Notes under the pieces: model-generated | Databases searched by the model: none | The model's input: the letters and a program-made list of their open reading frames with translations, nothing else | Told to the model about the DNA's origin: nothing | Made by a program: the position numbers and the translations under genes | Shown here: piece after piece, positions 31,678 through 57,223 of the stretch | Layout: each line of letters starts with the position of its first letter | Numbering within the stretch: position 1 is the stretch's first letter | Origin: Hysterium pulicare CBS 123377 | Taxonomy: Eukaryota > Ascomycota > Dothideomycetes > Hysteriales > Hysteriaceae | Direction of reading: 5' to 3' | Length of the DNA: 64,000 bases | Assembly (NCBI GenBank): GCA_000467715.1 | Contig: AJFK01000162.1 | Location: 1 to 64,000, forward strand

Positions 31678-32690
31678 TCACGGGTCTTGCGGCTCTCGCG
31701 CGCCAGATTCCTCTTTTATAAGCTGGCGTTGGGAACTTTCAATGACCACTTGGTCTATGAACCATGCAGGTAGTTGGGTGGTTCCATGATCCGAATGAAG
31801 TGGGTCGTTCTTGTAGAATGCCGAGACAGCTTGGTTCACTCCGTCCATATCCATGGTGATCGGTGCACAGAGATCGAAGTCCAAAACCCACAGTTGTATT
31901 TCGTTTGGCGTGCCGTCTTCGCAATTGGGATTTGGACCTTCCCCAGCAACTGTGCATCCCATAACTTCAGATCGAGTCGATGAGTCCTTCTCTCTTTGCT
32001 CCAGCTTATGAAATATTGCGCTCGTTTTCATTTGTCCAATGACAATTTCAACATCGTTCCCATCTATCTCGGCCTCCCAATGCATCATTGCTAGCGCATC
32101 CGCCATGCCTAATACGATACTTTCAACATCAAGCCCGATTTGCTCCACCTGATCCATTCACAGAGGGACGTTCCTCAAGGAAAAGAAAAGAGAACTAGGT
32201 TGCTTCACTCGCCGTTTTGACAAGTACAGCCGTCCTAGGCAATCACGGTTCTCCTGGCTGGTCCGAGCAGTCTCTTTCCCTCTTTCGGGACAATATCGAT
32301 CGATGATCTGCAGTCGAAGATCTTCTGGAACTGGCGGTATACGTTTGGAGCACATGATGTTGCAGGCTAACGCGCCTTTGAGGGGAAATCCTGAGAGATG
32401 TTCGTCCCACCATTCCTGATCCTGGGCGTTGGTGTACCAGTAGTAGCATAGTACGAGGAAGTTGAGGGGTCCAATATTCTCCAATCGTTTCATGGCACCG
32501 ACCAAACGAGTCTGCATCTTGTATTCGTTCCATGATTATCTCAATGTCCCACGTCTTCTCGTTTGACGACATAGGGAGTGCCAGCTTGCTCCCAGACGGT
32601 CCCACAGTTCCCGGCGCCTATTCTTCGAAACGAGGACGTACTTTTCTTTTTCACATTCCTACAATCAAGGTGTGACTTTTGATGGGGTTC
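31678..32690 (-). pseudogene. DUF3669-domain gene with few breaks
   Basis: The minus strand reads, in order, FRRIGAGNCGTVWEQAG, YVVKRED, then in another frame SWNEYKMQTRLVGAMKRLEN, NIMCSKRIPPVPEDLRLQII, NRDCLGRLYLSKRR, FFSLRNVPL, a TGA, then DQVEQIGLDVESIVLGMADA, LAMMHWEAEIDGNDVEIVIG, WVLDFDLCAPITMD and VNQAVSAFYKNDP. This is the whole fungal DUF3669 layout: a kinase-like GxGxxGxV start, the RNxPLxxDQMEELGLD block, AMHWxAxxDxNDVE and a WVLDFDxC motif resembling a kinase D-F block. Breaks seen are one frame change near 32555 and one in-frame TGA at about 32160, exactly between PL and MDQ where the family has an ordinary residue. Expression as two pieces or a recent loss are both possible. The function of the family is unknown. 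Confidence 0.7.
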
Positions 32691-33026: not shown

Positions 33027-36000
33027 ATGTCTGTCGGCTTTGGCTTCTCCGTTGGAGATTTTCTAGCCGCCCTCAAGCTTGTCGGAACGGTGATCGATTC
33101 CTTGCGCGAAAGCGGGACCTCAGGCACCCAGTATCGTGAACTGATTCACGAACTATACACCCTCGAGTCTGCCCTCCTCCGAGTCAAACGAGTCGAGCTC
33201 GACGAGTCCCAGAATGCAGAGCGAATCGCACTTCGGCAAGCAGCAGCGCAGTGTCAGCGAACGATCGATGTCTTCTGGCAAAAGATACAGACGTATCAAC
33301 CACACCTGAGATCGGGAGGGTCAGGGTCAAGGTTGAAGGATGGATGGATGAAAATAAAATGGGCAGTTTGCAAGAAAGACGATGTGGACAGGTTTAAGGC
33401 AGACCTAAGAGCTCAGACTAGCTCGATTGAGGTGCTGCTATTAACCGTCCAAATGGATAGTAGTTCTCTGCATGCTCGAAGACAGGATACTCAGCATAAG
33501 AGTCTAGCGACAAAGCTTCAGTCCGTGTCGGGTCAGTGGATGGCCAAACTTGCTTCGATTACAGATAGCATCGCAACGTGCGTCGAACACGGAAAACGGC
33601 TTCTCGAATCTACAACGCAAATAGTTAGAACCAACATCGCAGTCTTCCAAGTCATGATGGATATTCAAAAATTCATAACGCGTATTCCGGCTCAAGTTGA
33701 TCGGCAGCAACCTGTGTATCTCATCGACGCATTTGGAAAAGCCTCACCATTTCACCTTGAATTCGTCAGATCTGCAGAAGCCCTCACGGCAGTATTGAAA
33801 GTCAACTTTAGAGCGTCTAAAGTTGGCCCAGAAAAGATAGACAGGGGAGAATTTGTGCTCGAAGAAACAGCAACCCAAAAATTGATCAACCTTGACCGCG
33901 AATGGGACGAATGTTTCTTTCCTGGACAACGAATTGCCATGAGCATGACATTTGAGGCCAATTCATCCATGTCCAAATCCACCTGCCCGAAATGTGGAAC
34001 TGGGGCCTTGCAAACGCCAGATGTCGAAATCGAATGGTATGAATATTTCTTACCTGCCCATTCTCTATACCGCATCATCTAAAAGTGCGCTCGACGCTTA
34101 CTAATGTCCCATAGCGAGAAGTGCGGTATGATATATCGTAGGATAGAAGAGGAGTTGCCTTCCTTTATACCGCCATCAATGCCACTCGCGACAACTCCTG
34201 AAACAGTCCCAGAACGGCCGCGGTTACCGTCAGTGTCCTTGAAGTCCACGTCTAGGCGCATTGAAAAGCGCAAGCTTCCTGCCGACTTCGATGAAATTGG
34301 TAGGTTCCGTCGAGTGCGTATCATTGATTTTAAGTTTGCAGTGTCGGATGACGACGATCCTGCGCCTGACCCAGGCATCCATGTAATTGCAAAACGTGCG
34401 AGTAGTCGACCTGAACTAAACGTTCCGGATCCAATTATCCGCATGCTTGCGCAACGTGCGGGAGCAGATCCTCATCTCCTAGCTGTAATGAAGGGTGTTG
34501 CCACAGGACATGGAAGTCCGACGCAGCTTGCTTCCTTCCAGAGCCATATTAGCGATTTAACAGGCATTATGGATGCGCGAAGCACAGCATCAGACCATAC
34601 TCTCTGCACGTTGTATCAACTTGTCGATGATCAGTGGAAACGCCAGGAAGATGGGCATTATCAACTTGTCTTGGTTAGCGTGCCACTTCTTAAAACCTGT
34701 GGAAGCAACTACTTACACGTACAGGGTCATCCCGAAATTAGGTTCCTCGGTGTGCAAAAGGATTCAACCTTAGCACATAGCATTCCTATACTCAACGAAG
34801 GCGTCGATCTCCAGTTCCAGCAAGGTGAGCAGCTTAGACATGCAGCAGTTGATGCTCTCTCACATTCCCCAGGCAACATTCTTATCTGGACAACCCCTGA
34901 TGGCTTAGACTTTGCGCTGCATTTTGGCGCTGAGAAAGCTTTTCTGGAAATCAAGTGAGTCGTCCTGTTTTCAATTGGTGGAAGTCTGATAAGACTGCAT
35001 CGCAATACCAAATGTCATTTGTGCTTCATTTAAGCTGACTATTTCTTTAGGGAATATGTTCTGAATCGCACCATTCCACCAAGATTGTGCGGTAGGTCAT
35101 TCTGGACTCATAGTAATGGAACCTGTCAGTCTTGCAAAACGTCACAACGTGCTTGCGATGGTTCTTGGCCATGCTCGGAATGCATTGCACTCGGGGAGCA
35201 AGAGGCATGTCGGTATGGTCAGGCACAAAAAGCGGTAGTCCGCCTACCAGAAGACCCCCAGAACGAGGTTGGCCACCATAGGCGCGGGCCTTGGTCTCAA
35301 CAGGAAGATAGCTGGTTGCTAGACCTTGTTCGTCGGGACGGACCTTACAATTGGGTTCGGATTTCGCAAAGTATGCAGACTCGATCACCAAAACAGTGTC
35401 GCGAACGATATCAACAGAACCTAAAGGCCACTCTGAATCACGGGCCTATCACTCCGGAGGAGGGTAAGCAAATCGAGCGTTTTGTCAAAGTCGCAGGGAA
35501 AAGGTGGGCAGACATTGCTCGCCATCTTAGCGGGCGCAGCGAGAACCAAGTCAAGAACTGGTGGTACAGTTCACGGGACCCTGACGAACGGGAGGTTTTA
35601 GTATCCGAATCAGACACAGAGGACGAAATAATGGACGATGCGTCTGCTCAAGCATTTTCAGGCCCCACTCAACCGGACAACTTGTTCGCATATAGTAATT
35701 ACACATCAACGTCCCAGGTGGCGGCCGGACCTCTCAAACAGTACACCCAGCATCATTTGACGTCGCAGAGCACGCAATCACTGATGCGATCTGCGCAGAT
35801 CCAACAAAACCCGCCGTACACAGCCCCGGCTGCCCTACAGGCTGCCGATAACTTTGATGCTCTTTACAACACCATGTACCACCTCGAACAAAAACCGCCT
35901 GCCCTACAGTCTGTCGATAATCTTAGCAACAACGTCGATGCTGCATACACCACGCCGGACCACCTCTTCGACCCCTACAATCCAAAGTTCGATGCAGATC

Positions 36001-36287
36001 TGACCGCTAGTATGTTCTTTCCGGCTATCATACAGCCTGCCGACAATAGCAGCAACAACATATTCGACCCTTATGATCCAATGCTCGATGCAGATCCATT
36101 CGGTCTGTCCGCCAGTATGCTCTTTCCGGCTACCATACAGCCTGCCGACAATAGCAGCAACAACATATTCGACCCTTATGATCCAATGCTCGATGCAGAT
36201 CCATTCGGTCTGTCTGCCAGTGTGCAATTCCCGACGCAGTTCTCCTTCGACGCGCGACGAGGTAGATTATCAGAAGAATATGCATAA
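33027..36287 (+). CDS. Fusion: NLR-type helical domain, ubiquitin-like domain, zinc ribbon, Zn2Cys6 finger and two Myb repeats
   Basis: Three exons, 33027-34036, 34115-34954 and 35051-36287, splice into 1028 codons. Both introns (78 and 96 nt) have good donors, branch sites (ACTAAT, GCTGAC) and phase-2 joins that rebuild CEKCGM and KEYVLN. Residues 1-225, starting MSVGFGFSVGDFLAALKLVG, form the helical lead found in fungal NLR-like and ubiquitin-like-domain proteins. Residues 227-310 (VYLIDAFGKASPFHLEF to FFPGQRIAMSM) are a ubiquitin-like fold. CPKC (320) and CEKC (337) make a zinc ribbon. After a poorly conserved middle comes C642-x2-C-x6-C-x5-C-x2-C-x8-C670, a Zn2Cys6 finger with the usual CDG. 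Two Myb/SANT repeats follow (about 693-742 and 746-793), with WSQQED, NWVRIS, CRERY, RWADIA and QVKNWW. The tail has a 35-aa tandem repeat. A DNA-binding regulator is likely; the sensing role of the front half is inference. Two fused neighbouring genes is the main alternative. Confidence 0.75.
36018..36227 (+). repeat. 105-bp in-frame tandem repeat, two copies
   Basis: Copies at 36018-36122 and 36123-36227 differ at only a few bases and encode a 35-residue unit with IQPADNSSNNIFDPYDPMLD. An older, more diverged partial unit lies just before (about 35910-36017). All are in frame within the Myb protein's acidic, Asn/Pro-rich tail. Confidence 0.85.
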
Positions 36288-36339
36288 ACTTCAGGCGGAA
36301 GCCATGCAAGCATAAAGCAAGCTCAGTAAACACAACATA

Positions 36340-36700
36340 GTTGATGACGGGGCTTGGCCTCAACATGAAGACAGCTGGTTGCTCTACCTTGTTCGTCGAG
36401 ATGGGGCTTACAAAAAGAACGCATTTCCGAAGGTATTCAGACTCGATCACCAAAAAAAAAGCCTAAACTGCTATCATTAGTACCTAAAGCGAACAAATTA
36501 TGTGGGGGTCACCCCAGAAGAAGACAACCAAACGCAGCGTTCAGTCACTGGCTGTAAATGATCGGCAGACGTTGCTACTAAGCTGAACGGGTGCGGTGAC
36601 ACCTAAGCCGGGAACTGATGGTACTGTTCACGGGAACTTGACAATCAGTAACCAGTCACATACAGACAACGAATTAGACGATGCGTAGATATCATCAGCC
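36340..36700 (+). pseudogene. Decayed second copy of the Myb exon segment
   Basis: Starting near 36351, the DNA follows 35287-35640 of the upstream gene base by base with many substitutions and small gaps. Matching landmarks include AGCTGGTTGCT, CCTTGTTCGTCG, CAGACTCGATCACCAAAA, TGGTACTGTTCACGGGA (original TGGTACAGTTCACGGGA) and GACGATGCGT. Weaker similarity may run on to about 36850. Stops occur in all frames, so it no longer encodes a protein. It looks like an old tandem duplication of the Myb-coding part that was not kept. Both transitions and transversions are visible. Confidence 0.75.
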
Positions 36701-36953
36701 AAGTAGATTGGTAGAAATGGACAACTACAGCCAGCTACGGCCTCGGTATCGGCTGCTATAAGGTTACGATCAAACTTCTAGTACAGGGCTATCGTGGCTA
36801 AACGTACGCGTCGCCCGTATTCCCTAACTAGAATGTTGAGTCATAGCATCTAGGCATCGACATTACATATCTTATCAAAACTAGGCTACAGGTCTCGGAC
36901 GTAACACAATTCCAGCCGACTCACCCTACCAAGAGAGCAGTTTGCCTCACTAA

Positions 36954-39846: not shown

Positions 39847-42467
39847 TCATCCATATTCGCGATTCGGTCTGACCATCGAGGCTCCCGCTTTGGTGTCCTG
39901 AAATACTATCTCAAGATGATCATCCTGCACACTGATCTTGACGTTCTCTTCGAATATCTCACGCGTGATGATCCCCGCTCCTGTATTATCCAATATCTTC
40001 GAAGGGGCGGAATTCATAGCTAGAGCTACGACTTCCGGGGCAGTGTCCCAAGCGTTTGAAGTGTAACCTGTGCATGTTGAATAACCCAGGTGTAGGATCG
40101 CAATGAGGCAGTAGACTAAAAGCACCGCCATTGCCGCCTTCTGGGTAATGCCATGGTAGCTGTATGCATAGCCAGTCAAGGTGACGTGAGCAACCAAGGT
40201 CGTGACATCTGGTAGCTGGTCAGATGGAATGTCATATGCGTTGCCACCCCATCCCATATAGCGTTCAGGTAGGAACTCATTCATGAACTCGTCGGACCAA
40301 TCGTAGCCCGGATCCAGGACGTCGCTTCCCTTAGCCGTTCCGGCCATTGGGATGTCGTAGCTCGCCCGAGATATTCCATTCAGTACCATCTGCGTGATAA
40401 TAGTTTCCACAATTATCTCATTATATGCAGGATCCGGTGAACCCGAAGAGTTCCATAAACCAGCTGTCGTTGCCATTTGTGCGAAAATCGTGGTAGTATT
40501 CTCATTTCGCAGCCTAGGGTTCAAGTATTTGGCCCAAGCAGCTGACATATAGATCTTTGTGTAGTCGGTATTGATCGTCCCTGTATCGTGCCAATCCCCA
40601 GTGTCACTGTGTGCTATTTTGAACACCATTCTATTCGAGGACATCGAGGCCGGGATGTAACGACTGTCAATTGAACATGAGTAAGTAGCATCCTCTGCAT
40701 CTTCTGCATCGTTGTTGCTACCAGCAAATGTTGCTACGACTTGAAGGGTGCTATTAGTCTCATTGAGCGACTGTACGTCGTCGAACCAGATCAAATTCGG
40801 TTGGCTCCCAGAAGTGAGTGAAGAACGCGCTGCGTTGACAATCGGATCGTCGACGTGAGTAATGTTTGTGCATGAAAGCTTAGGAGAGTCGGAAGCTGAT
40901 CCCTTTGAAGCAAGGCTTTTCAAATCTGGAAACGAAAGTTGGAGATAATCAGGTTGAGATTGTGTCGAGTTATGGGACCATGTTTGACTTATACACCTCG
41001 TAAATACTGCGGGCTGTTGACTTACGACTGTGTAGGTAGCTTCCTGCCGAGACCGGAATCGTTTCTCCGGCTGGTAATTGGCAGCAGCATACATGTACCA
41101 ATGCCCAATTTCGACAATGCTGTCAGCGATTGCCACAATGGGCACCGTTGCCATGGTGTACGCGTTTGTCAGAGCCGGCCGTAAGGAGTCTACATCTGTC
41201 CTTCTAACAAGGTTCCGACAGCCCTTTGAGAGAATTTCCCGTCCAGTAGGATTTCTAAAGGAACATAATCCGCTGGTTTGAGCGTCCGGAGATAGGAGCA
41301 ATACCCTTTATCAATGATCTCCCATCCACCATGAGGGCACGAGAGATCACCAGTATCTTGGTCGCAATGTGCTAGGTTGTCTGAGCTATTCAAAGCTGTC
41401 GGAAATAGCTCGTGAGGCGTTGCATTGATGTAGTAAGTTGTTCCGCCTGCGGGCCAATCAATTAAGGCCGGCCTCATAAGCTGAGCAGTGGAAGGACCGA
41501 CGGAGACTCCAAGAAGGGTACATAAAACCAAAATGCCAATGAGTGTCCATTTCTTGTGTTTCCGAGTCCATTGGTAGTGTATCGTTCCGAGAAACTCCTG
41601 AGACCACAGAAAGCTGAGATCACTAAACTCAAGCCCGGCGAAGAGCGCACCGAAGGGCAGGCCTTCCCCAAACGTAACTTCACGGCGGATATAAGTAAAG
41701 AGAGCTGCAGTGATGGATGCTAACATCAGCAATTCATGAATTTTGGCCGCAAATTGTAAAGCTGCCAATTTCTGCGTATCTTCTCCGACATGACCCGTGA
41801 GTTCACCACCGATGTAAAACTGATGCCAATTGATATAGACCAGGCCGATGGCGGCTCCAACAGGAACGATGTGAATGATATTTCGAAGAAGCGCGTGGAC
41901 TTTAGAGTGGTAGATTGCGACCTTCAGAGGCTCCTTTGGTATCTCTTTCGGTATCTCCTTTTTGCGTTGACCGCGGCAACAACAGCACCAGCACCAGCAC
42001 CAATACAACAAAGAGATGGGACCATACAGCCGGAGGGTTCTGATGGCTGTTTGTAGATAAGGGATTATCCAGTTATATAGTCTCGTTCCGATGGACCTTT
42101 GAGAGGATTCGGTGGAGCATCCCTCTGTGGGAATCTCACGCTTAAACTCATGCTCTGGGTGTTTGATTAGGCTGCTAAGTGATTAGAACATGTGGAATGA
42201 TACGAGCTGACAGCAGCATTTTTCATCCGAATAAGGCCGGGAAGACAATACTTACTTGACGTTGTCGGAATGCCTTCCATTACTAGACACTGAACCCCAT
42301 GATTGTCGAGCCTCAGAAGGTACGCAATTCTCTTTAGTGACGTAACGACTACATGCGAACGAAGGGTTTGCAGGCCGCCCGGAGAAAAGCCCATCTCCAG
42401 ATGTCGGTACGAGCCTTCGAGAGAGCTTTGGAGGACGTGTAACTTCAGGGGTGATGGGGCTTGCCAT
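39847..42467 (-). CDS. Large multi-span membrane protein of unknown function, with one apparent frameshift
   Basis: Exon 1 is complement 42256-42467 (MASPITPEVTRPPKLSRRLV and onward). A phase-2 intron of 81 nt with branch CTAAT joins it to exon 2 starting at 42174 (SLIKHPEHEFKRE). Exon 2 has TLRLYGPISLL, then a run of alternating Trp and Cys, then helices including LLRNIIHIVPVGAAIGLVYI, KLAALQFAAKIHELLMLASI and WTLIGILVLCTLLGVSVGPS. The region then continues as a large extracellular-looking domain with many N-x-S/T sites, and ends with one more helix (AVLLVYCLIAILHLGY) and a tail. This order matches a common uncharacterised Pezizomycotina family (LQFAAKLHE, GEGLPFGALFAGL, GPSSA, WPAGGT). The frame changes by one base near 41190, between LLEGQ and VDSLRPALTNAYT, with no usable intron. 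It is either a real break or a sequencing error. Confidence 0.7.
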
Positions 42468-47280: not shown

Positions 47281-50200
47281 CTAACTAGACCCCAAAATCC
47301 TCTCATAAGCATCCTCAACCTCCTTCGCAACCTCCAAAAGCGTCACAATAACAATCTGATGCGTAACATTCGGCAACCGATCCCTATGCAACCCAATCCA
47401 TTCCAACGGCGGCGTTGCCTCACCCATATCTCTTAACTGCGGCGTTTCAATCAGCGGCGGCTCCATAGCCGTATACTCGTATTTGCTTTGCGGGACATTG
47501 ACCACCGCGGTAATTTTCTCTCCTTCAGGAGGAGAAGGCTGATCGGAGGAAGTCCCGGGACGAGAGGAATCACCGCCAGAGGAGGAGGATGTAGTAGGGG
47601 AGGTAGAGGATTTTTGTTCGGCGGTTGTGATTTTGACGGCGGATTCGGGGAGGGGTTTTCCGAGACGGGAGGCGAGGGAGCGGCAGTGGTTCGACCACAT
47701 TGTGCGGATGAAGGAGATGCGGGAGTAGTTCCAGCCCACGTCTACTTTACCTTCCAAGAAGCTCTTGAAGATGTAGTCGATGTGGTTTGAGTCTGGTTGC
47801 TGCCATGTCTGCATTGTTGCGATGACTTTTGGGACGCGGAGAATGGTGCCGCCTCGCGCTGAACGAGCGTTTGTTACTACGTCGTCGACCGTGAGGTCGC
47901 CTACGGTTTTGGGTCTTTTGGGTTGGGATATGGATGCTAGGGCGACGGAGAGTTGGCCGAGTGTCATGCCGAGTCCTGAATGGATCTTCCCTTCCTCGAG
48001 TGCGACGGCGAAACGGGCTTGAGCGTCAGATGCCTCAAGCATAAAAATTTGATTGTCAGCGAAGGTCGATGGGAACGCGCCAATGTTGATAGATCGCAGC
48101 GTTACGACTACGTCTGTGTGGAGTGAGATGGGTGTTTTAGAGTCATCAGTGTTTGGCTTAGTGATGATATGGGACTGAGATGCAGTACGATAAGGAGTTA
48201 CTGTTGAGTTCCGGCGTAGAAACTTTTCGATGTCTTTAAGAGATTGAGCATATGCTTGTTGGTTTTCTTGGACAAGACGCTCCATGGCTTGGAATAACGC
48301 AAGACCTTGTGCCGCACTCGTAGCTGTACAGAAGACATGAACTTTATCTCCATCAAGGATGGCTACCAGGCGGTCGCGAGAGCCTCGAATTTGCTCCCGC
48401 ACGTTGTACATTAAGAAATCGAAGTTGGCGATATCCGCAATGACGAAGGCTTGGTAGTCAAACCCTGCTTTGACTCGAAGCTGCTGGAAGCCGAGAGACG
48501 CTTGGATGAGAGGTGTCTGCCGAATTCCAATGGTCTGAGATGGCCAGCTTATAGAGGTTCGTACTTTGACGCCCGCCAAGTCTACAAAACCACTGGTCCG
48601 ACCAGAGCTCACAATGCCAACCTTTTCAATTCCAATGCACAGGTTTTGCTCCCAGTCAGTACTCTTCCTTGATGACGCCCAAAGGTTGGTGATGGTGAGC
48701 GAGGTCTTTCCAATTGCTTGACCAAGATCAAGCTCTACGAACACATTGGCTACTGCAATATTTGCGTTCCAAGGAAAAGCAGTTGCTGCCGAGACTTGTT
48801 GATAGCGTTGGATCAGATATTCCTGCGGTTCTGTGCTAGTGGATGGCGCTGGGGTCTTTGAGGCCTGGCGAACTTCTGGAGGTATCCAAATCTCCCGGAA
48901 TAACAGAAAATCTTGCAGTTGACGAGCATTGATCTGAAGTCGCGTGGGGTCAACTTTGAGAATTGCTGAGATTCCACTGGTGCCACTCAAGTGTTTACTG
49001 TTCATCATCGAGAGAGTTATGGAATCAACATCGAATCCAAGAGTGGATTCTCGAGAATACACATGCTGCACTGATGCTTCTAACTTTTCGAAGGCTGCAG
49101 AAGCTGCAAAGAAGTGGCCATGCTCTTGGGACTTTACGCTGTTGACTGTGATATAAATATCCTCGATACGTGCAACGGCAGCGACCCTAGCGATCGGCTG
49201 ACAACTGAGGCTAAATTCTTGCTTGCAGATTCGAATGCCAAGATTAAGGCGTGTCCGCCCCAAAATAGCACTGGGGTCAGCAGTGATTAGATTTTCTTCA
49301 TCAAGTAGCTTGACGGAAGGCTTGGTAGGCGAGGTTTGTTCTGTATCTTCGGATTCATCGCTTTCCCTAACGACTTCCTTGACGCTGTCCGAGATGTCCA
49401 TTACTAGCGGGACGACCGACGGATATAAGGTATTGTTCGATGCGTCGACCTTCAGTTCAGCATTGATAGATGGATCTCGACCATCGTCCTTGTACTCAAT
49501 TCTCAAGGCTACACCCGGCGCTCGAAGTGAAGTGCTATTTGCGGAGCCATCATTCACGAATTGGCCATATCGACCTTTCTGCGGGAGACGGCTTCCTCTG
49601 GGACTCTGCGGGCTTTTATTTGTACCACTACTGTACTTGTTATCTTGCAGGTGTACGACAGCGCCTGCAAAATCGGCATCTATCAATAGCGAGGACAATC
49701 TTTTATTGCCGAAAGGATTTGCGCGCTGGGCACCGCTCGTTGTCGGAGTCATATTCCAAGTAGCAGAAGCCGCGCGAAATTTCTTTACTGCCAGAACGAT
49801 TGATTGCTCAATAACCTTGGCCGGCAAAATGAAGCGTGATTCGAGTCGAACATCGAGCGACTTCCCGGCAGCTTGGAAGGCCAGTTTGCGACTTTCTTTC
49901 GTCGAGCCGTAAGCAACATTAAAGACCACTTCTGGAAGGAGAGCCGAGTTCAGTGATCGCTCCGCTTTATCGGCGGATGTTGGGACCATTTGTAACTGCA
50001 TGTCTTCAATCATTAAACGAGCGGCATCATCCTTTCTAGTAGACAAATCAATTCGCCTAAAGGACAGCACAAGATCCTCAAGCTCTGTTCCAGGATACGG
50101 TGGAATTGCTGAGCTCCCTACTATCCAGCTGACTTGGATATTCAGTAACTCAAGCGAATATGATGATGTGAACAAGGCGCCGGAGCTAACGCTGTCTTGT

Positions 50201-53200
50201 TCACTTCCAGTGTCTCTTTTCTCGTTGGTTGAGTTCCGACTCTTCGCGTGACGAAGCCTTCGGAGGTATTTCTTCTCTTTTGACAAATCCAGGTCTCTAA
50301 TTTTATCTTGAAGATGGTTGAAGACATCAACGACCGCTGAGGCTGTATCAGCGAAAATATTCACCTCAAGCCCAGAGCTTTTGACTTTGTATACCCTCCG
50401 GGCTGGTACTGAGTCATCTTGCACAGTGGCGTGGAAACTCGCTCCAAAGGTTACATTCCCACATCGGCGAACATGATCTTTGTCCGACAAAGCCATCTCG
50501 ATGCTGATTTCCTGTAATCGTGCCGTAACTTCTGGAAGAGTCAAGACCGTATCATCCGTCGGAGATAGATTCGTGGCTTTGAGCTGCATGGAAGCCAATC
50601 TCAATGCTAGGGTTGCTGAAGTTGATCCAGGTAGTTCTCCAGGGGCACTGGCTAAGATGTTGAGCCCCGCAAAAGTCAAATGTACTTTGAAAACAACATT
50701 TCTGCTAGACTGTGCTTGAACAGCCGCTGGGGACTTTTCTGATTGGGGGAAGATTTCATGGAAATGCGTTTCAAGGATGTTTATATCATCTTGGACGGCA
50801 TGGAAGACTGTGGACATTTCAGGCTTGTTGATAGTACTTAGTAATCCTTGAATTTCGGATGCTTGGACGGTGATGGCGTCAACGAAACCCGATGCCATGA
50901 TAGTCGTCTGTTTGCTCGTTTGCATCAAATTGAGAGTCCCATTAACTGGAGGCAACTCTAATGTGGTGATGACATTGGCACCATCGATTGTGCTGCTATA
51001 CATCTTGTGTGTGTGCATATTGAGCTCATAGTCAACTTGTAGCGTAATTTCCGGACCAACGACAGGTGAGACTGAGATACGGCCAAATGATCCAGATATT
51101 GACCACATCAGTGGTTGGAGTAAGCCCACTTCAATGAGATACTCATCCATAAACAATGCGACAGTGATGTTTGGCAAATGACGGCCTGGCTCCTCATGTA
51201 CCGCTGTCTCCGGCTTGGTTGTGGGTTTGAAATTCACAGCTTGCTGATGGAAATATGCAACTTCATCACGCAGGACTGAATCCAGAACCTCGATGAAGCC
51301 CAATATATCTTCTTTGATTTCAACTGTAAGCATCCGGCTAGCACCTGCGATCTTTATCTCATCCGAGACCCTGCCAACTTCACTGGCATTCTGAGGATGA
51401 TAGTGCGAGAAGTAGACACTTGGTTGATCCAACTTCGATTTCAGCATGAGACGTGAGCGGGAAAGTAACTCTGTTGCAGCAGACTCGAGATGGAGTAGTA
51501 CAGTCGTTGTCGTGCCCTGGTCGGAATGCGATGGTTCAGAGCCAGCGAGCGAAAATCTTAATTGTCGACCAATGGACACGCTATGGATGTTGATGCAATC
51601 AAGATTGAAGCTTGCGTTGTCCGTCACATAGATTACTTGAAAGTCGTGGTGTTCTTTCTTCCCGATAGGACTATGGACATGCTGCACAAGCTCTTGAGAA
51701 GAATAGTCAGCCGTTGCAGGTAGTCCTGTCTCATCACTTCGAAACTTATCACCCTGGAGATCGTCACTCTGGAACATCTTGATGAGTGTCTCGATGAGCT
51801 CACAGACCTCCCAGTTGAGGCTCACAGCGGTGTCTTTCGCGTTGATTTGGACGATCGTAGAACGTATTGGGGCTTCAGCGTCCATGAGCATGAGGCCTGT
51901 CGGTTGGGGTGGAGGACGAATGGCCAGATTGACAGCCACTATGCTTAGCGATGCTTGACTTTGTTTTGGACCAGGGTCGATAATCAGCTTGATGCCAGCC
52001 AACTTGACACTGAGATAGATTGGGATGGGATGAGAAAGTTTCTCGATGCCAGCCATGGAGCCATAGAGTGTTCGCATGGCCAGACTCTTCTTGACATGAG
52101 CCAAATCCCAGGTACGCCATTCATCCCACATCGATATGACCTTTTGCTCTGCATCGCCAGGACATGAAAGCTGACGCTTAGCACAACTATGCTTAACTTT
52201 GGTCTTTTCATTGCCCGGCAAACACTGCCAAATGAAGCGGAACCGAGAGACAATCTTCCATGAATCATGAGTTCGGAGGTGGCCCTCGGAAGCACGCATA
52301 GCGTAGGATGGTCTCGTTAAGAAAGCTGGGTCCGGAAATTGGGCTTGAGATGTTGTAAGAATCCAGGCGAGGTATCGAAGGTGTTTTTGTTGCTCGATAC
52401 TGATATTTTCGAATGTTGCTGCAAGTTCTTGACCCAGCAGCGTAGTACGATGGATAAGAGAAGCAAGGTATTCAACCTTGCTGCTCGCAGTAGCAGTTTC
52501 AAACCCTCGGAAGGATAGATTGACGGACATTTCTCTATTCTTCAATATCCAGAGGAGTATATCCTTCACATCCACTTGAATGGCAACGTCATCATTGGGC
52601 GTATTCTGAGATCTCTCCTTAATGGACAGGGTAAGTGATCTCAAAGTAGTATGGAGGGAGATTGTGTCTTTATCCGCCCGTTGTCCAGGATAGTCTTTTT
52701 TCCGTGCTACGACTTTCAGCCTATCCAGTATGAGGTCGTACTGATCTTTTTCGAACTGTGTCTCTTCACCAGAATGCTTTGTGAATTCATTCACAAAGCG
52801 GACATAAGTAAACGGAACGCAAATGCTGAGTTCATTCGATTTGCCTTTCCCTGCTCGACGTTTCTGGTGGTCCAAAATTTTGGTCATTACGCCAATATGA
52901 AAGCCATCCAGTATATCTTCTGGGCGATGAGGGTTAATATGATCCACTAGGTTTGCGGCCGACCTAATTGCCTGAGGTGTACAATGGACCCGGATTCCAT
53001 TCTCAGCGTTCACTAGGAAGCTGGTGTGAGCAAAATCCTCATTGAGATGCTTGGTCGAGATGTCATTGAATTCAGGAAGATCCTCGTCAGAATCTGCCAA
53101 TGCAGACACGGCAGGCAGCACGGGTACATCGGATAGATCGGGTTCGATCGGATTCAAAGGAAAATATGGCGTTGCTAGAGGACTTGACAACGCAAAAGAT

Positions 53201-56200
53201 GAAGGAGGTAAACCTCGCTTTCCTATTTCCTCTTCACTAGGAAGTACATAAGGGTAATCAAGACTCTTTGTGCGGGATAACGATCGTGCTAGCAATGTTC
53301 TGCTCTGAGAAAATTCGACTGAGTTCCCATGAGCTTGAGGCTGATGGATATTGCGAATGCTTTGAGACAGAGAATTAAGAGAGGACGATCGTAAAGGCGC
53401 TGGTCGCAGTGTACGGCCTCTATTGAATGACTGTTTCGAGGAGTAGCTCGATGATGTAAATGAGCTTTCATCGGAAATATGCTGAAAAATTGATATTGGG
53501 GGGGGTAATGGTGGGAACTGCATTGCTGGGGGTTGGATATTATGTTGAGACTTGGCTGTGTGTGGTGGAATGGGTGACGACCTCTCTTCGACAATGAAAT
53601 ACGGTGTACGATTCGTTCGTTGGTCTTCTACTCGCATGTGAGATTGTTGCTTTTCGCGCTCGAGGGAGAAGTCAAGCTTCTTTTTAAGCACCGTCAGAGA
53701 GAGGGTAGTCTGAATGAACGCGTGTGTATTGACAAGATGTTTCTCTCCGGCACGAGTTCGATGGCGAGATGCCGATCTTGCATCTACGCAACCGACTGTG
53801 AGGTCAGGCACTAAAATTTTGAGGCGCTGAGAGAAAGCGTTGCCAGCCAGGTCGTTAAAATTGACCGTGACAGGACCAGTATGTACTAGAAGAGCTTCTT
53901 CTGCAACATGTATCCACACATGAACTGTGTCTGTCTTGAGCCGTAGAAACGTCGAGTCATGGATGATCAAGGGCGGTACTGGCAAGGCGTTTTCATCGTC
54001 ATCCAGTGTGAAAGCAAAGCAGCGTGCTGCGCCTGCCGCCCTTTTGAGAAAGTCAGACGAGCACTCCCCAGATACTTTGCCGACATCAAAGTCCCAGTTG
54101 CAGACGTAAGTAGGTTCCGTAGGAGGAAGGCCAAAAAGTCGATGGCCGAAAATATCAATAGACTCAATGAAGACCTCTGTTCGGCTGCTGGAGTCAACGT
54201 GCACACCTGGGCTCAAGGCTGTACCGCCAAGTGACAAGCTGAGAGGGCTGAAATTGACCATAAGATCCATGTAGTAGTTGGTAAACCTTAAGTCTGCCGA
54301 AGCGTAGGGCAGGTCGACCCGAATACTGCTCTCTGCAGAGTACAGATTTGCGGGGACGAGAATGGTGACTTCCTCTGCCGTGATACAAAGAACGACATCA
54401 AGATCATTCGACTTCTTCACATGCTGGCCTAGGGGTGTAGTTCCGTCTACGGCTAGATTTTGACTTGGAAGACCCTGGAATTCTTCAAGAGTCTTGAAGT
54501 GCATATCTTCGCCGAAGTAGTTGTCCTTGATCTTCATAAAGTGACGGATAAGAAAGCCATACAGCTCTAATGAGAGCTTTGTCCCATTGATCTCGAGATA
54601 CAATCGGTCAGTATTCATGGAAGAAGTTTCGGTCAAGTAGGTATGACTGCCTTTGACGCTTACGCCCCCTAATCGCGCAACATTGTTGGAACGAACAAAG
54701 GTATTCAAGGTATTCTTTGAAGGCATGCATAATTCAAGCCCCAAATCCTCGCCATGAACGTCGAAAGGTATCTCGTTCTGGAGGGGCCTGTATTGATCTA
54801 GGGGTATCTTCAATTCCGCATGAAGATGCTGGCCGTAGAGGATGATGAAGTTATTGTCATCCAACTCAGATGGATTATTAACAATATTTGACTCATTGGT
54901 ATTAAGATAGAGCTTGAACTTGTGAAAGTCTACGTTCAAAGAATATTGAAATGGGACAAAAGTGAAGTAATTTGGTGGTGGTCCAGAGCTCCAGTCCGCA
55001 ACAAGATCTGTGAGTAGGAATAAATGGTCACGCAACAAGAATAATTCCAAATCCTGACAAGATATGTTGAAGGTCCACTTCCGTAGGCTGTTCCAGCTAA
55101 GTGGGTTGGAGAGATCGCAATCGAGAGTTAGAGGACCGGATCGCCACAGTAAGCCGTGGTTGACGCTGGAGAATATTTCAGCGCCGCGGAGATCGACATC
55201 CAATTTGTTATGAAAGCCGTTTTGCGAGGCAACCATATCCATTATGTAGTTGACCGAAGAATTGGAGGCAACTTTGATATCAAGCCACGCAAATGGTCGA
55301 ACATTGGCTCCTGAAGTACTATTGTCGCGTTGTTTGCCTCTTATTGGCTTTCGCTTGCCTCGTCCTCTTCCTTTTCCTTTCTCTGATTCCTTCTTCCCGT
55401 GGCCTACCACGGCATGCGCTTTGCCCTTCCATTTCCAGTCTTTCGAGGACTCTCGCATAGGGATACGTAGCACAGTATCATCCTCAATACTCAGGTAGAG
55501 TTTGAATATTGACAACACTCGAAGCTCGCCGGTCGAAAGAGAAGAAGCTGGGTGAGCATCGACGTGAGCGCTAGGGAAGAAGAAGTTCTGAAAAATCACT
55601 CGGTGTCGATCCGTCCAAGGACCATAGTTAATCGTACCTCCGTAGACCTGAATGTCCATCCCATATTCAGGAGGTATGCCACCATTGATGTCCCCTTTAT
55701 GCGCAGGATGGAAGTCTACACTCTGATCCAACTCTGATGGTATCGGTCCAGGGACGTCCCAGTAGAAGCTCACATTGATACATGGACAATCAGCGATCAA
55801 CGACGTTTTTGCGTATTCAATCGCATCCCATTCATCGTGACCGTCTTCCTGGCTTTCGTCCAGGTAACGCATCAGCCCTTTCCACCGATCTTGGCCGGGT
55901 ATATCCGTTTGAGGCAGGAAACTTTTCTCGCCTTTACCATCTTTACCGCCGCTCGCTTTCGAGTGAGCAGTAATTGAGTCGGTCGATTTAGAGAATAAAG
56001 TTGATAGGCCGAGAAGACCACTCCAAGGCTTCCGCCTTTTCTGGGGATGAATGTGTTTCCCATCCTGAACTTCGTCCAGCCCATCTCCTTCGGCCTCTTT
56101 CTTCAACCGCGCCGCCGAATCAAGCTGGAGCGATTTGAAATCCTCGTTCGGTTTCATATGAACAACGGGATGTGTGAATTGGAAGTTGAAAAGCTGTTGA

Positions 56201-57223
56201 TACGAATCCAATGGTCCACATGGAGCAGCGTCGAACTCCCCGCTGGCCTTCTCAAACTGCGCCGTTATTACAGCGCGAGTGTTTTCGTTACCAACAACGA
56301 TCGCGCCTTTATTACAATCAACATGTATCGGCAATAGTCGCAAGAAAGCAGGCGGTTCTGCTGGCTTTGAACCTCGAATAGGAAGTTGCTCGCTCTCGAC
56401 ATTTTCGAGCTTGTCCAGTCCGCTGCTTCCAGTGGTTCGAGACTTTCTTAATCGATTATGCTGCTTGTCACGATTGTCATCAGTAGAGAACCTTATCGAA
56501 CTGGTCCGAACGCTTTCCGGCCCCTGATGCTCTGGCTTAGTTTCTTCCTTATGATCGTTGTCGTCGCTTTTGCGGAGCATAGCTTCGATAATGCCATCGT
56601 ATGCAGGGCTTCGGTTATACAAGAATGCTTCGACGCCAGAAACTTTGATAGAGATTCTGCATGGCAGGGTTTTCTTATTTTCAATGCCACCCTTTTCGGC
56701 CCTGTCTAAGCTTCTGTTTCCACTTCTCTGAGGACTTCCCTCGCTGCTTGGTGTAGTCGCGCCATCCGATTGGGGCGGCTTACTCGAATACAACTCCGCA
56801 TCCTTGACTTTGCGAATCCAGTATTGCCAGGTAATGTATCCACCGTGAATGAATATTGTCTCGTTGTGGCCATGGTACCGAATGTCTTTGAAAAAGATGC
56901 GGCCTCCCAAGAGCGATATTTGTAGGGCTTGTATGTCGATATAGGCGTGAAACGTGTGCCAGGTGTAGGCCCTGATCCCGTACGAGACCAAGGTCGCGAA
57001 GAGGCGGTTGAAGTAAAACAGGAAGAAGACGGTCCTAGAGATAGTTAGGCTTCGACAAATGCAGTTGTACTTTGAGGAACTTACAGGATACCGCAAACTA
57101 GCAATTCAACCAGGAAGACCCTGAACGAGCGTCAGTAAGAATGAAAAGAGACGGCAAGGAAGCGACAAACCAGTTGAAGCCGGATTCCGGGTTCAGAGGC
57201 TCGGAAGAAATTCCTCCAGCCAT
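47281..57223 (-). CDS. CSF1: Csf1/BLTP1 (Tweek, KIAA1109) bridge-like lipid-transfer protein
   Basis: Three exons, complement of 57171-57223, 57085-57120 and 47281-57034, give 3280 codons; introns are 50 nt each. The two small first exons supply MAGGISSEPLNPESGFNW and the membrane anchor VFLVELLVCGILTVFFLFYF. The third exon continues NRLFATLVSYGIRAYTWH, IDIQALQISLLGGRIFFKDI and HGGYITWQYWIRKV, the hallmark N-terminus of Csf1. The very long middle is beta-rich, as expected for a repeating-beta-groove rod, with charged disordered loops (for example GKGRGRGKRKPIRGKQR and an Arg/Ser-rich loop near residues 1200-1400). The end PPLEWIGLHRDRLPN, VTHQIVIVTLLEVAKEVEDA and YERILGSS is the conserved FSA_C tail. 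In yeast Csf1 sits at the ER and helps move phospholipid for GPI-anchor synthesis and cold tolerance. Looks intact. It is divergently transcribed from the TMEM184-like gene. Confidence 0.96.

What the first reader, a model, noticed from the sequence alone, without database searches (positions are those of the whole stretch)
33027..36287. NLR-type front end and ubiquitin-like domain fused to Zn2Cys6 plus double Myb DNA-binding region
The frame shows an immune-receptor-like helical lead, a ubiquitin-like domain and a zinc ribbon, followed by a Zn2Cys6 finger and two Myb repeats, all in one spliced frame of 1028 codons. The two introns join in phase and rebuild conserved residues at each junction. 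From family knowledge, the front part usually stands alone or heads NLR-like proteins, and the Zn2Cys6 plus Myb part is a known pair in Leotiomycetes. The two together suggest a regulator in which a signalling or protein-interaction module directly controls DNA binding. The middle segment (about residues 350-615) matches nothing I know and may be the real novelty.
Basis: partly seen in the sequence, partly recalled or inferred. Interest (0 to 1): 0.75.

Follow-up and report, generated by a model that had tools for sequence, protein, structure and literature searches.

The report
Fungal transcription factor with signalling front
This fungal gene appears to encode one protein that joins a death-signalling-type front part and a ubiquitin-like fold to two different DNA-binding modules, so it is probably a gene switch with a built-in interaction domain, made of known parts in an unusual order.

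Summary
Three exons (33027-34036, 34115-34954, 35051-36287) splice into one 1028-aa frame with codon bias like other ORFs of the window (0.14 bits/codon; nine others 0.05 to 0.18). Pfam finds PF17111 (HeLo-like; now named PigL_N), ULD_2, two Myb repeats, and a Zn2Cys6 cluster that is just below cut-off on the whole protein and above it on a fragment. No NTPase or receptor repeats were found, so "NLR-type" fits one domain only.

Best reading: a nuclear dual-DNA-binding transcription factor whose HeLo-like/ULD/zinc-ribbon front serves protein contact or self-assembly. Three c-Myb base-contact residues (recalled) align with K731, K785 and N786. The tail is acidic and aromatic.

Zn-cluster plus homeodomain-like factors are known (35 of 191 fungal genomes; PMC5415576). 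The papers searched showed no such front on one, but no fungal protein set was available, so rarity is untested. The middle (about 350-640) has no Pfam match and no significant PDB match. A decayed Myb copy lies just downstream.

The parts
33027..34036 (+). Exon 1: residues 1-336 and two bases of codon 337
   Evidence: codon bias 0.16 bits/codon in frame, negative in the other frames
33117..33602 (+). PF17111 (HeLo-like / PigL_N), residues 31-192
   Evidence: 36.0 bits, cut-off 27.2; 39.5 bits on exon 1 alone, from residue 30. The first 29 residues lie outside the match; the most hydrophobic 19-mer of the protein starts at residue 5 (KD 1.6)
33702..33953 (+). PF22893 ULD_2 ubiquitin-like domain, residues 226-309
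   Evidence: 55.1 bits, cut-off 24.5
33984..34124 (+). CX2CX13CX2C zinc ribbon, residues 320-340, third Cys codon split by intron 1
   Evidence: read from the sequence; no profile reached its cut-off
34037..34114 (+). Intron 1, 78 nt, GTATGA...CTAAT...TAG
34115..34954 (+). Exon 2: end of ribbon, basic stretch, unassigned middle
   Evidence: codon bias 0.15
34242..34277 (+). Basic stretch, residues 380-391, candidate nuclear localisation signal
   Evidence: 6 K/R in 12, the highest count in the protein, shared with the 12-mer at 379; signal function inferred
34287..34952 (+). Middle segment, residues 395-616, no known family
   Evidence: no Pfam match to E 10 for 338-617, none in NCBIfam to E 1 for 400-617, best PDB E 0.12 for 400-617; single-sequence model pLDDT 40.6
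34955..35050 (+). Intron 2, 96 nt, GTGAGT...CTGAC...TAG
35051..36287 (+). Exon 3 with stop codon: Zn2Cys6, two Myb repeats, acidic tail
   Evidence: codon bias 0.01 (35052-35600) and 0.18 (35601-36287) in frame, negative in the other frames
35124..35210 (+). Zn2Cys6 cluster, CX2CX6CX5CX2CX8C, Cys 642 to Cys 670
   Evidence: best PDB matches PUT3, 1ajy and 1zme, E 0.11 and 0.13, not significant
35283..35423 (+). Myb repeat R2-like, residues 695-741; K731 aligns with c-Myb K128
   Evidence: c-Myb numbering recalled
35442..35573 (+). Myb repeat R3-like, about residues 748-791; K785 and N786 align with c-Myb K182 and N183
   Evidence: c-Myb numbering recalled
35577..36284 (+). Acidic, aromatic C-terminal tail, residues 793-1028, candidate activation domain
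   Evidence: net charge -26, 44 W/F/Y/L in 236 residues; 105-bp tandem repeat x2.2 at 35999-36225; activation inferred

Best explanation
The locus is one three-exon fungal gene for a 1028-residue nuclear transcription factor with two kinds of DNA-binding domain. Shown by sequence: HeLo-like (PF17111) domain, ULD_2, zinc ribbon by spacing, basic stretch, unassigned middle, Zn2Cys6, R2R3-type Myb pair, acidic and aromatic tail. Inferred: the Myb pair binds an AAC-core Myb site, since the base-contact residues are kept; the Zn cluster, 24 residues before it, adds contacts to the same site; the tail recruits the transcription machinery; and the HeLo-like/ULD/ribbon front acts as a protein-contact or self-assembly module that receives a signal from a partner and sets the factor's activity, location or stability. 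The last step is the least certain.
For: Open spliced frame of 1028 codons with GT...AG introns, branch-like sites and C337 rebuilt. Codon bias 0.14 bits/codon against -0.29 and -0.44 in the other frames; nine other ORFs of the window 0.05 to 0.18. Pfam matches above cut-off for PF17111, ULD_2 and Myb and for Zn_clus on a fragment. c-Myb R2R3 alignment over 97 residues without gaps (1h88_C), with K128, K182 and N183 kept. Basic stretch 380-391 and tail of net charge -26. Zn-cluster plus homeodomain-like factors exist in 35 of 191 fungal genomes (PMC5415576 Table 3, passages).
Against: No transcript and no relative seen: five scans found none, in viral and prokaryote collections and by patterns that reach close relatives only. 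Zn_clus is below its cut-off on the full protein (19.1 against 21). Codon bias dips to 0.01 over 35052-35600, where Zn cluster and Myb lie. The c-Myb N186 equivalent is Y789. Single-sequence AlphaFold models are poor (pLDDT 40.6 and 39.5), so neither the fold of the front nor of the middle is tested. HeLo-like domains are known as membrane-targeting cell-death domains (PMC12881547, passages), which does not fit a nuclear protein easily.
Confidence: 0.6

Rival explanations
1. Two adjacent genes: a HeLo-like/ULD_2/ribbon protein ending at the TGA at 34956-34958, and a separate Zn2Cys6-Myb factor.
For: Reading on from exon 2 gives a stop at once, FLEIK then TGA. The front part can exist as a gene of its own (recalled); the KK-1 locus table lists a 253-aa ORF with PF17111 as its only domain (PMC10512319, passage).
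Against: The exon-3 frame opens only at 35034, 17 nt before the splice point, and has no ATG before 35373, after the Zn cluster. The stretch 34955-35050 scores negative for coding in all three forward frames, and donor, branch-like site and acceptor are all present. A leader exon elsewhere was not searched for.
Confidence: 0.12
2. The front is a working cell-death or membrane module, and the protein is a bifunctional death effector whose DNA-binding half only holds it in the nucleus or regulates its own gene.
For: PF17111 match; hydrophobic N-terminal stretch at residues 5-23, KD 1.6; HeLo and HeLo-like domains kill cells, and an extreme N-terminal helix matters (PMC12881547, passages).
Against: The PF17111 match starts at residue 30-31, so the N-terminal stretch is not matched by the profile. 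KD 1.6 is only borderline (threshold recalled). No NLR domain was found among the 20 ORFs scanned of the 51 listed. Amyloid motifs were not searched for.
Confidence: 0.1
3. A factor in which the front is a passive leftover of a fusion and has no regulatory role.
For: The neighbourhood holds decayed sequence: a broken Myb copy at 36348-36686 and a possibly broken DUF3669 gene upstream, so rearrangement has occurred here.
Against: Exons 1 and 2 keep an open frame and normal codon bias (0.16 and 0.15), and both Pfam domains and the ribbon cysteines are intact.
Confidence: 0.13

Closest known systems
Zn_cluster+HD dual-specificity factors (Shelest 2017, PMC5415576)
   Same: Zn2Cys6 and a homeodomain-like domain in one fungal protein; IPR009057 Homeodomain-like is in its Table 1, and I take Myb to fall under it (recalled). 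35 of 191 genomes, at most 3 per species
   Different: The passages read describe no HeLo-like or ubiquitin-like front; single proteins of this class were not seen, so the same architecture could be among them
R2R3 Myb proteins (c-Myb, PDB 1h88)
   Same: Two Myb repeats aligned without gaps over 97 residues; base-contact K128, K182, N183 kept (role recalled)
   Different: Zn2Cys6 cluster next to the repeats; N186 replaced by Y; first Trp of R3 replaced by Ile
Fungal HeLo-like (PF17111) proteins and NLR N-termini (PMC9815663, PMC12881547)
   Same: PF17111 domain at the N-terminus
   Different: No NOD or sensor repeats found; DNA-binding domains downstream instead
Fungal ULD_2 (PF22893) proteins
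   Same: ULD_2 followed by a CX2C...CX2C ribbon; that such ribbons often follow ULD_2 is recalled
   Different: Ends in a DNA-binding region; the paper search gave no paper with the accession PF22893

Membership tests
Fungal NLR | N-terminal effector domain such as HeLo-like PF17111 | tested here: met
   36.0 bits, cut-off 27.2
Fungal NLR | NACHT or NB-ARC NTPase | tested here: not met
   no Pfam match up to E 1 in 1028 aa
Fungal NLR | C-terminal WD40, ankyrin or TPR repeats | tested here: not met
   none in Pfam up to E 1; only a 105-bp tandem repeat in the tail
Zn2Cys6 transcription factor | CX2CX6CX5-12CX2CX6-8C | tested here: met
   one match in the window's six frames, 0 in 100 shuffles; consensus spacing recalled
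Zn2Cys6 transcription factor | Pfam Zn_clus above cut-off | tested here: inconclusive
   19.1 on the whole protein, 20.2 on exon 3, 23.3 on a 93-aa piece; cut-off 21
Zn2Cys6 transcription factor | fungal-specific middle homology region, common but not universal (recalled) | tested here: not met
   no such Pfam match
R2R3 Myb DNA-binding protein | two adjacent Myb repeats | tested here: met
   PF00249 two stretches, 85.7 bits
R2R3 Myb DNA-binding protein | base-contact residues K128, K182, N183 | tested here: met
   K731, K785, N786; role of these residues recalled
R2R3 Myb DNA-binding protein | binds DNA | not testable with these tools
   needs EMSA or DAP-seq
HeLo-like membrane-acting domain | amphipathic or hydrophobic N-terminal helix | tested here: inconclusive
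   residues 5-23 KD 1.6; outside the profile match; model pLDDT 39.5
ULD_2 ubiquitin-like domain | PF22893 above cut-off | tested here: met
   55.1 bits, cut-off 24.5
One gene rather than two | transcript joining 34954 to 35051 | not testable with these tools
   no RNA data

The most novel reading that the evidence does not exclude
An immune-type signalling domain is wired directly to gene control: a signal makes the HeLo-like/ULD front assemble or bind a partner, and this switches a built-in Zn2Cys6-Myb factor, so that a domain family known for killing cells at the membrane gives a transcriptional output instead, with the middle segment as a new sensor or regulatory fold.
Probability: 0.2. 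Interest if true: 0.75.

Novelty: new variant of a known kind. Interest (0 to 1): 0.45.

Why it matters
How fungal cells turn recognition signals into changed gene expression is, as far as I know, poorly mapped; in the passages read, HeLo-like domains are described as membrane-targeting killers. A single protein that carries such a domain and a DNA-binding half would make that link directly testable by deleting one half. It also gives a case where two DNA-binding modules 24 residues apart may read one composite site. If the same architecture proves common in ascomycetes, it is merely an unannotated family.

Tried and rejected
NLR: rejected, no NTPase and no sensor repeats. Mobile element or Starship cargo: considered because fungal giant elements carry NLR-like and Myb genes (recalled). 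The Pfam scan of 20 of the 51 ORFs listed (E up to 0.001) gave GNAT acetyltransferase, phosphoribosyl synthetase (two ORFs), fungal rhodopsin, RGS (23.1 bits, below its cut-off of 23.9), DUF6601, Csf1, Ostalpha transporter and DUF3669, and no recombinase; 11 of the 20 matched nothing. Three more of the 51 are the exons of the finding; 28 were not scanned, so an element is not excluded. The one paper search on Starships asked for all five terms and returned 0.

Relatives: five scans of viral contigs and genome contigs with pieces of the protein matched 5, 1, 6, 15 and 53 stretches by pattern, none of which encodes a relative. This is expected for a fungal gene in viral and prokaryote collections and says nothing about rarity. 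Fold search: not run, since both models were poor. Weak Pfam hits Acyl-CoA-dh_C, Phage_cement_3, DUF3275 and Ecotin (below cut-off) I took as chance; HTH_23 and Myb_DNA-binding_7 (below cut-off) as echoes of the Myb repeats. NCBIfam gave one hit, TIGR01708 on exon 1 (11.3 bits, cut-off 80), taken as chance. PDB hits of residues 400-617 (4 up to E 10, best 0.12) were taken as chance; exon 1 had none. RIP as cause of the decayed Myb copy: 53 transitions to 56 transversions; dinucleotide indices of 36288-36900 lean to RIP (1.18; 0.98) but the stretch is only 613 nt (thresholds recalled); left open.

Papers: nine searches. Searches returned nothing; 14 (12 papers), 40 (5), 41 (4), 42 (15) and 57 (2) were listed whole, 21 showed 20 of 48 and 56 showed 15 of 273. 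No paper was seen to describe this architecture; passages of PMC5415576, PMC8637145, PMC9815663, PMC10512319, PMC8905617, PMC12881547, PMC8396895 and PMC5470089 were read, no whole text; the rest were seen as listings.

Full report
Gene model. The frame begins at ATG 33027 and ends at the stop at 36285-36287. Exons 33027-34036, 34115-34954 and 35051-36287 give 3087 nt, divisible by three: 1028 residues and a stop. Introns are 78 and 96 nt with GT...AG ends and branch-like CTAAT and CTGAC 10 and 12 nt from the 3' end. A codon-usage score trained on the Csf1 and DUF6601 genes of the window gives the spliced CDS 0.14 bits/codon in frame and -0.29 and -0.44 out of frame; nine other ORFs (or parts of them) not used in training give 0.05 to 0.18 (five of the nine have no Pfam match at E 0.001), and Csf1 halves scored against each other give 0.13 and 0.12. 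Both introns and 36288-36850 downstream score negative in all three forward frames. One weak spot: 35052-35600 scores 0.01, still best of its frames. So the model is a normal gene by these measures; no RNA was seen.

One gene or two. Reading on from exon 2 meets TGA directly, as the donor GTGAGT contains it. The exon-3 frame opens after TAA at 35031-35033 and has its first ATG at 35373, beyond the Zn cluster (35124-35210) and inside the first Myb repeat. A separate downstream gene would thus lose the Zn cluster and part of a Myb repeat, unless it has a leader exon elsewhere. I hold one gene at about 0.85.

Domains. Pfam on the whole protein: PF00249 Myb 85.7 bits (two stretches), PF22893 ULD_2 55.1, PF17111 36.0, all above cut-off; PF00172 Zn_clus 19.1, cut-off 21. 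On a 93-aa fragment Zn_clus scores 23.3, on exon 3 20.2. The cysteine spacing CX2CX6CX5CX2CX8C fits the recalled class consensus and is found once in the window's six frames, with 0 in 100 mononucleotide shuffles. The PDB sequence matches of this piece (11 up to E 10) include PUT3, Pho7 and CBF3 subunit B, which are Zn2Cys6 proteins (recalled), but also ribosomal proteins; none is significant (E 0.11 and above). The ribbon CX2CX13CX2C at 320-340 is read from the sequence; no profile reached cut-off.

What the front is. This Pfam copy calls PF17111 "PigL_N"; [quoted passage not shown] PMC8905617; passages). HeLo and HeLo-like domains target the plasma membrane and kill cells, and an extreme N-terminal helix matters (PMC12881547, passages). 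Here the profile match begins at residue 30-31, leaving the first 29 residues, with the most hydrophobic 19-mer of the protein (start 5, KD 1.6), unmatched. Whether it can act on membranes is open. No NACHT, NB-ARC or sensor repeat was found, so the protein is not an NLR.

What the back is. The Myb pair aligns to c-Myb R2R3 over 97 residues without a gap. The residues known (recalled) to contact the AAC core, K128, K182 and N183, are K731, K785 and N786; C130 is C733; N186 is Y789 and S187 is S790. DNA binding with a Myb-like core is therefore likely, by inference. Twenty-four residues lie between the last Zn-cluster cysteine and the first repeat. The 236-residue tail has net charge -26 with 44 W/F/Y/L and holds a 105-bp tandem repeat of 2.2 copies with 95% matches; it resembles an acidic activation domain by composition. 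Residues 380-391 have 6 K/R of 12, a candidate nuclear signal.

The middle. Residues 338-617 match no Pfam family up to E 10, and the whole-protein scan shows nothing between the ULD_2 match and the Zn cluster up to E 1. NCBIfam has no match for 400-617 up to E 1, and the PDB none below E 0.12. A single-sequence AlphaFold model of residues 400-617 has mean pLDDT 40.6; blocks within its residues 21-90 reach 51-67 and are mostly helical. That is too poor for a fold search.

Known or new. Fungal dual-specificity factors are an established class. Shelest (PMC5415576, passages) lists Zn_cluster+HD in 35 of 191 fungal genomes, at most 3 per species, with IPR009057 Homeodomain-like among its domain families; that Myb falls in it is recalled. 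A Botrytis cinerea and Trichoderma atroviride catalogue lists 16 and 10 dual factors, none Zn-cluster plus homeobox-like (PMC8637145 Table 2). Paper searches joining HeLo-like, ULD, Zn2Cys6 and Myb terms showed no report of the front on such a factor; they cover open-licence PMC text only, one search showed 15 of 273 papers, and I read passages, not whole papers. No fungal protein collection was on hand, so whether the order is common cannot be said. I file it as a new variant of a known kind.

Mechanism. Shown: the parts and their order. Likely: nuclear DNA-binding regulator. Inferred: front as contact or assembly module. The rival that the front acts at membranes, the rival of two genes, and the rival of a passive front are kept with lower weight. 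Surroundings: the Pfam-matched neighbours (9 of 20 ORFs scanned) are ordinary chromosomal families, with a broken copy of the Myb part starting 60 nt after the stop codon (tblastn 40% over 102 residues, E 1e-11; 81% over the first 109 nt) and, upstream on the other strand, a DUF3669 match in an ORF that may be part of a broken gene. The copy shows that the Myb part has been duplicated here at least once.

Noticed in passing
36348-36686 (+): Decayed copy of the Myb repeats starting 60 nt after the stop codon of the gene: 246 of 360 aligned positions identical (68%), stops in all three forward frames. RIP indices lean to RIP but the stretch is short.
   Followed up: partly
31678-32620 (-): DUF3669 match (43.0 bits, cut-off 22; profile positions 1-31 of 66) in ORF 31681-32157 on the other strand. 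Text that I recall as the upstream part of this family appears in more than one frame, with a stop between ORFs: a decayed gene, or unrecognised introns.
   Followed up: partly
35999-36225 (+): 105-bp in-frame tandem repeat, 2.2 copies with 95% matches, doubling an acidic-aromatic stretch of the tail.
   Followed up: yes
47284-57105 (-): Uninterrupted 3274-aa ORF with Csf1_N, Csf1_C and BLTP1_N matches, a bridge-like lipid transfer protein by family name.
   Followed up: no
39850-42182 (-): Two overlapping long ORFs (486 and 330 aa) with coding-like codon use (0.10 and 0.06) and no Pfam match at E 0.001.
   Followed up: no
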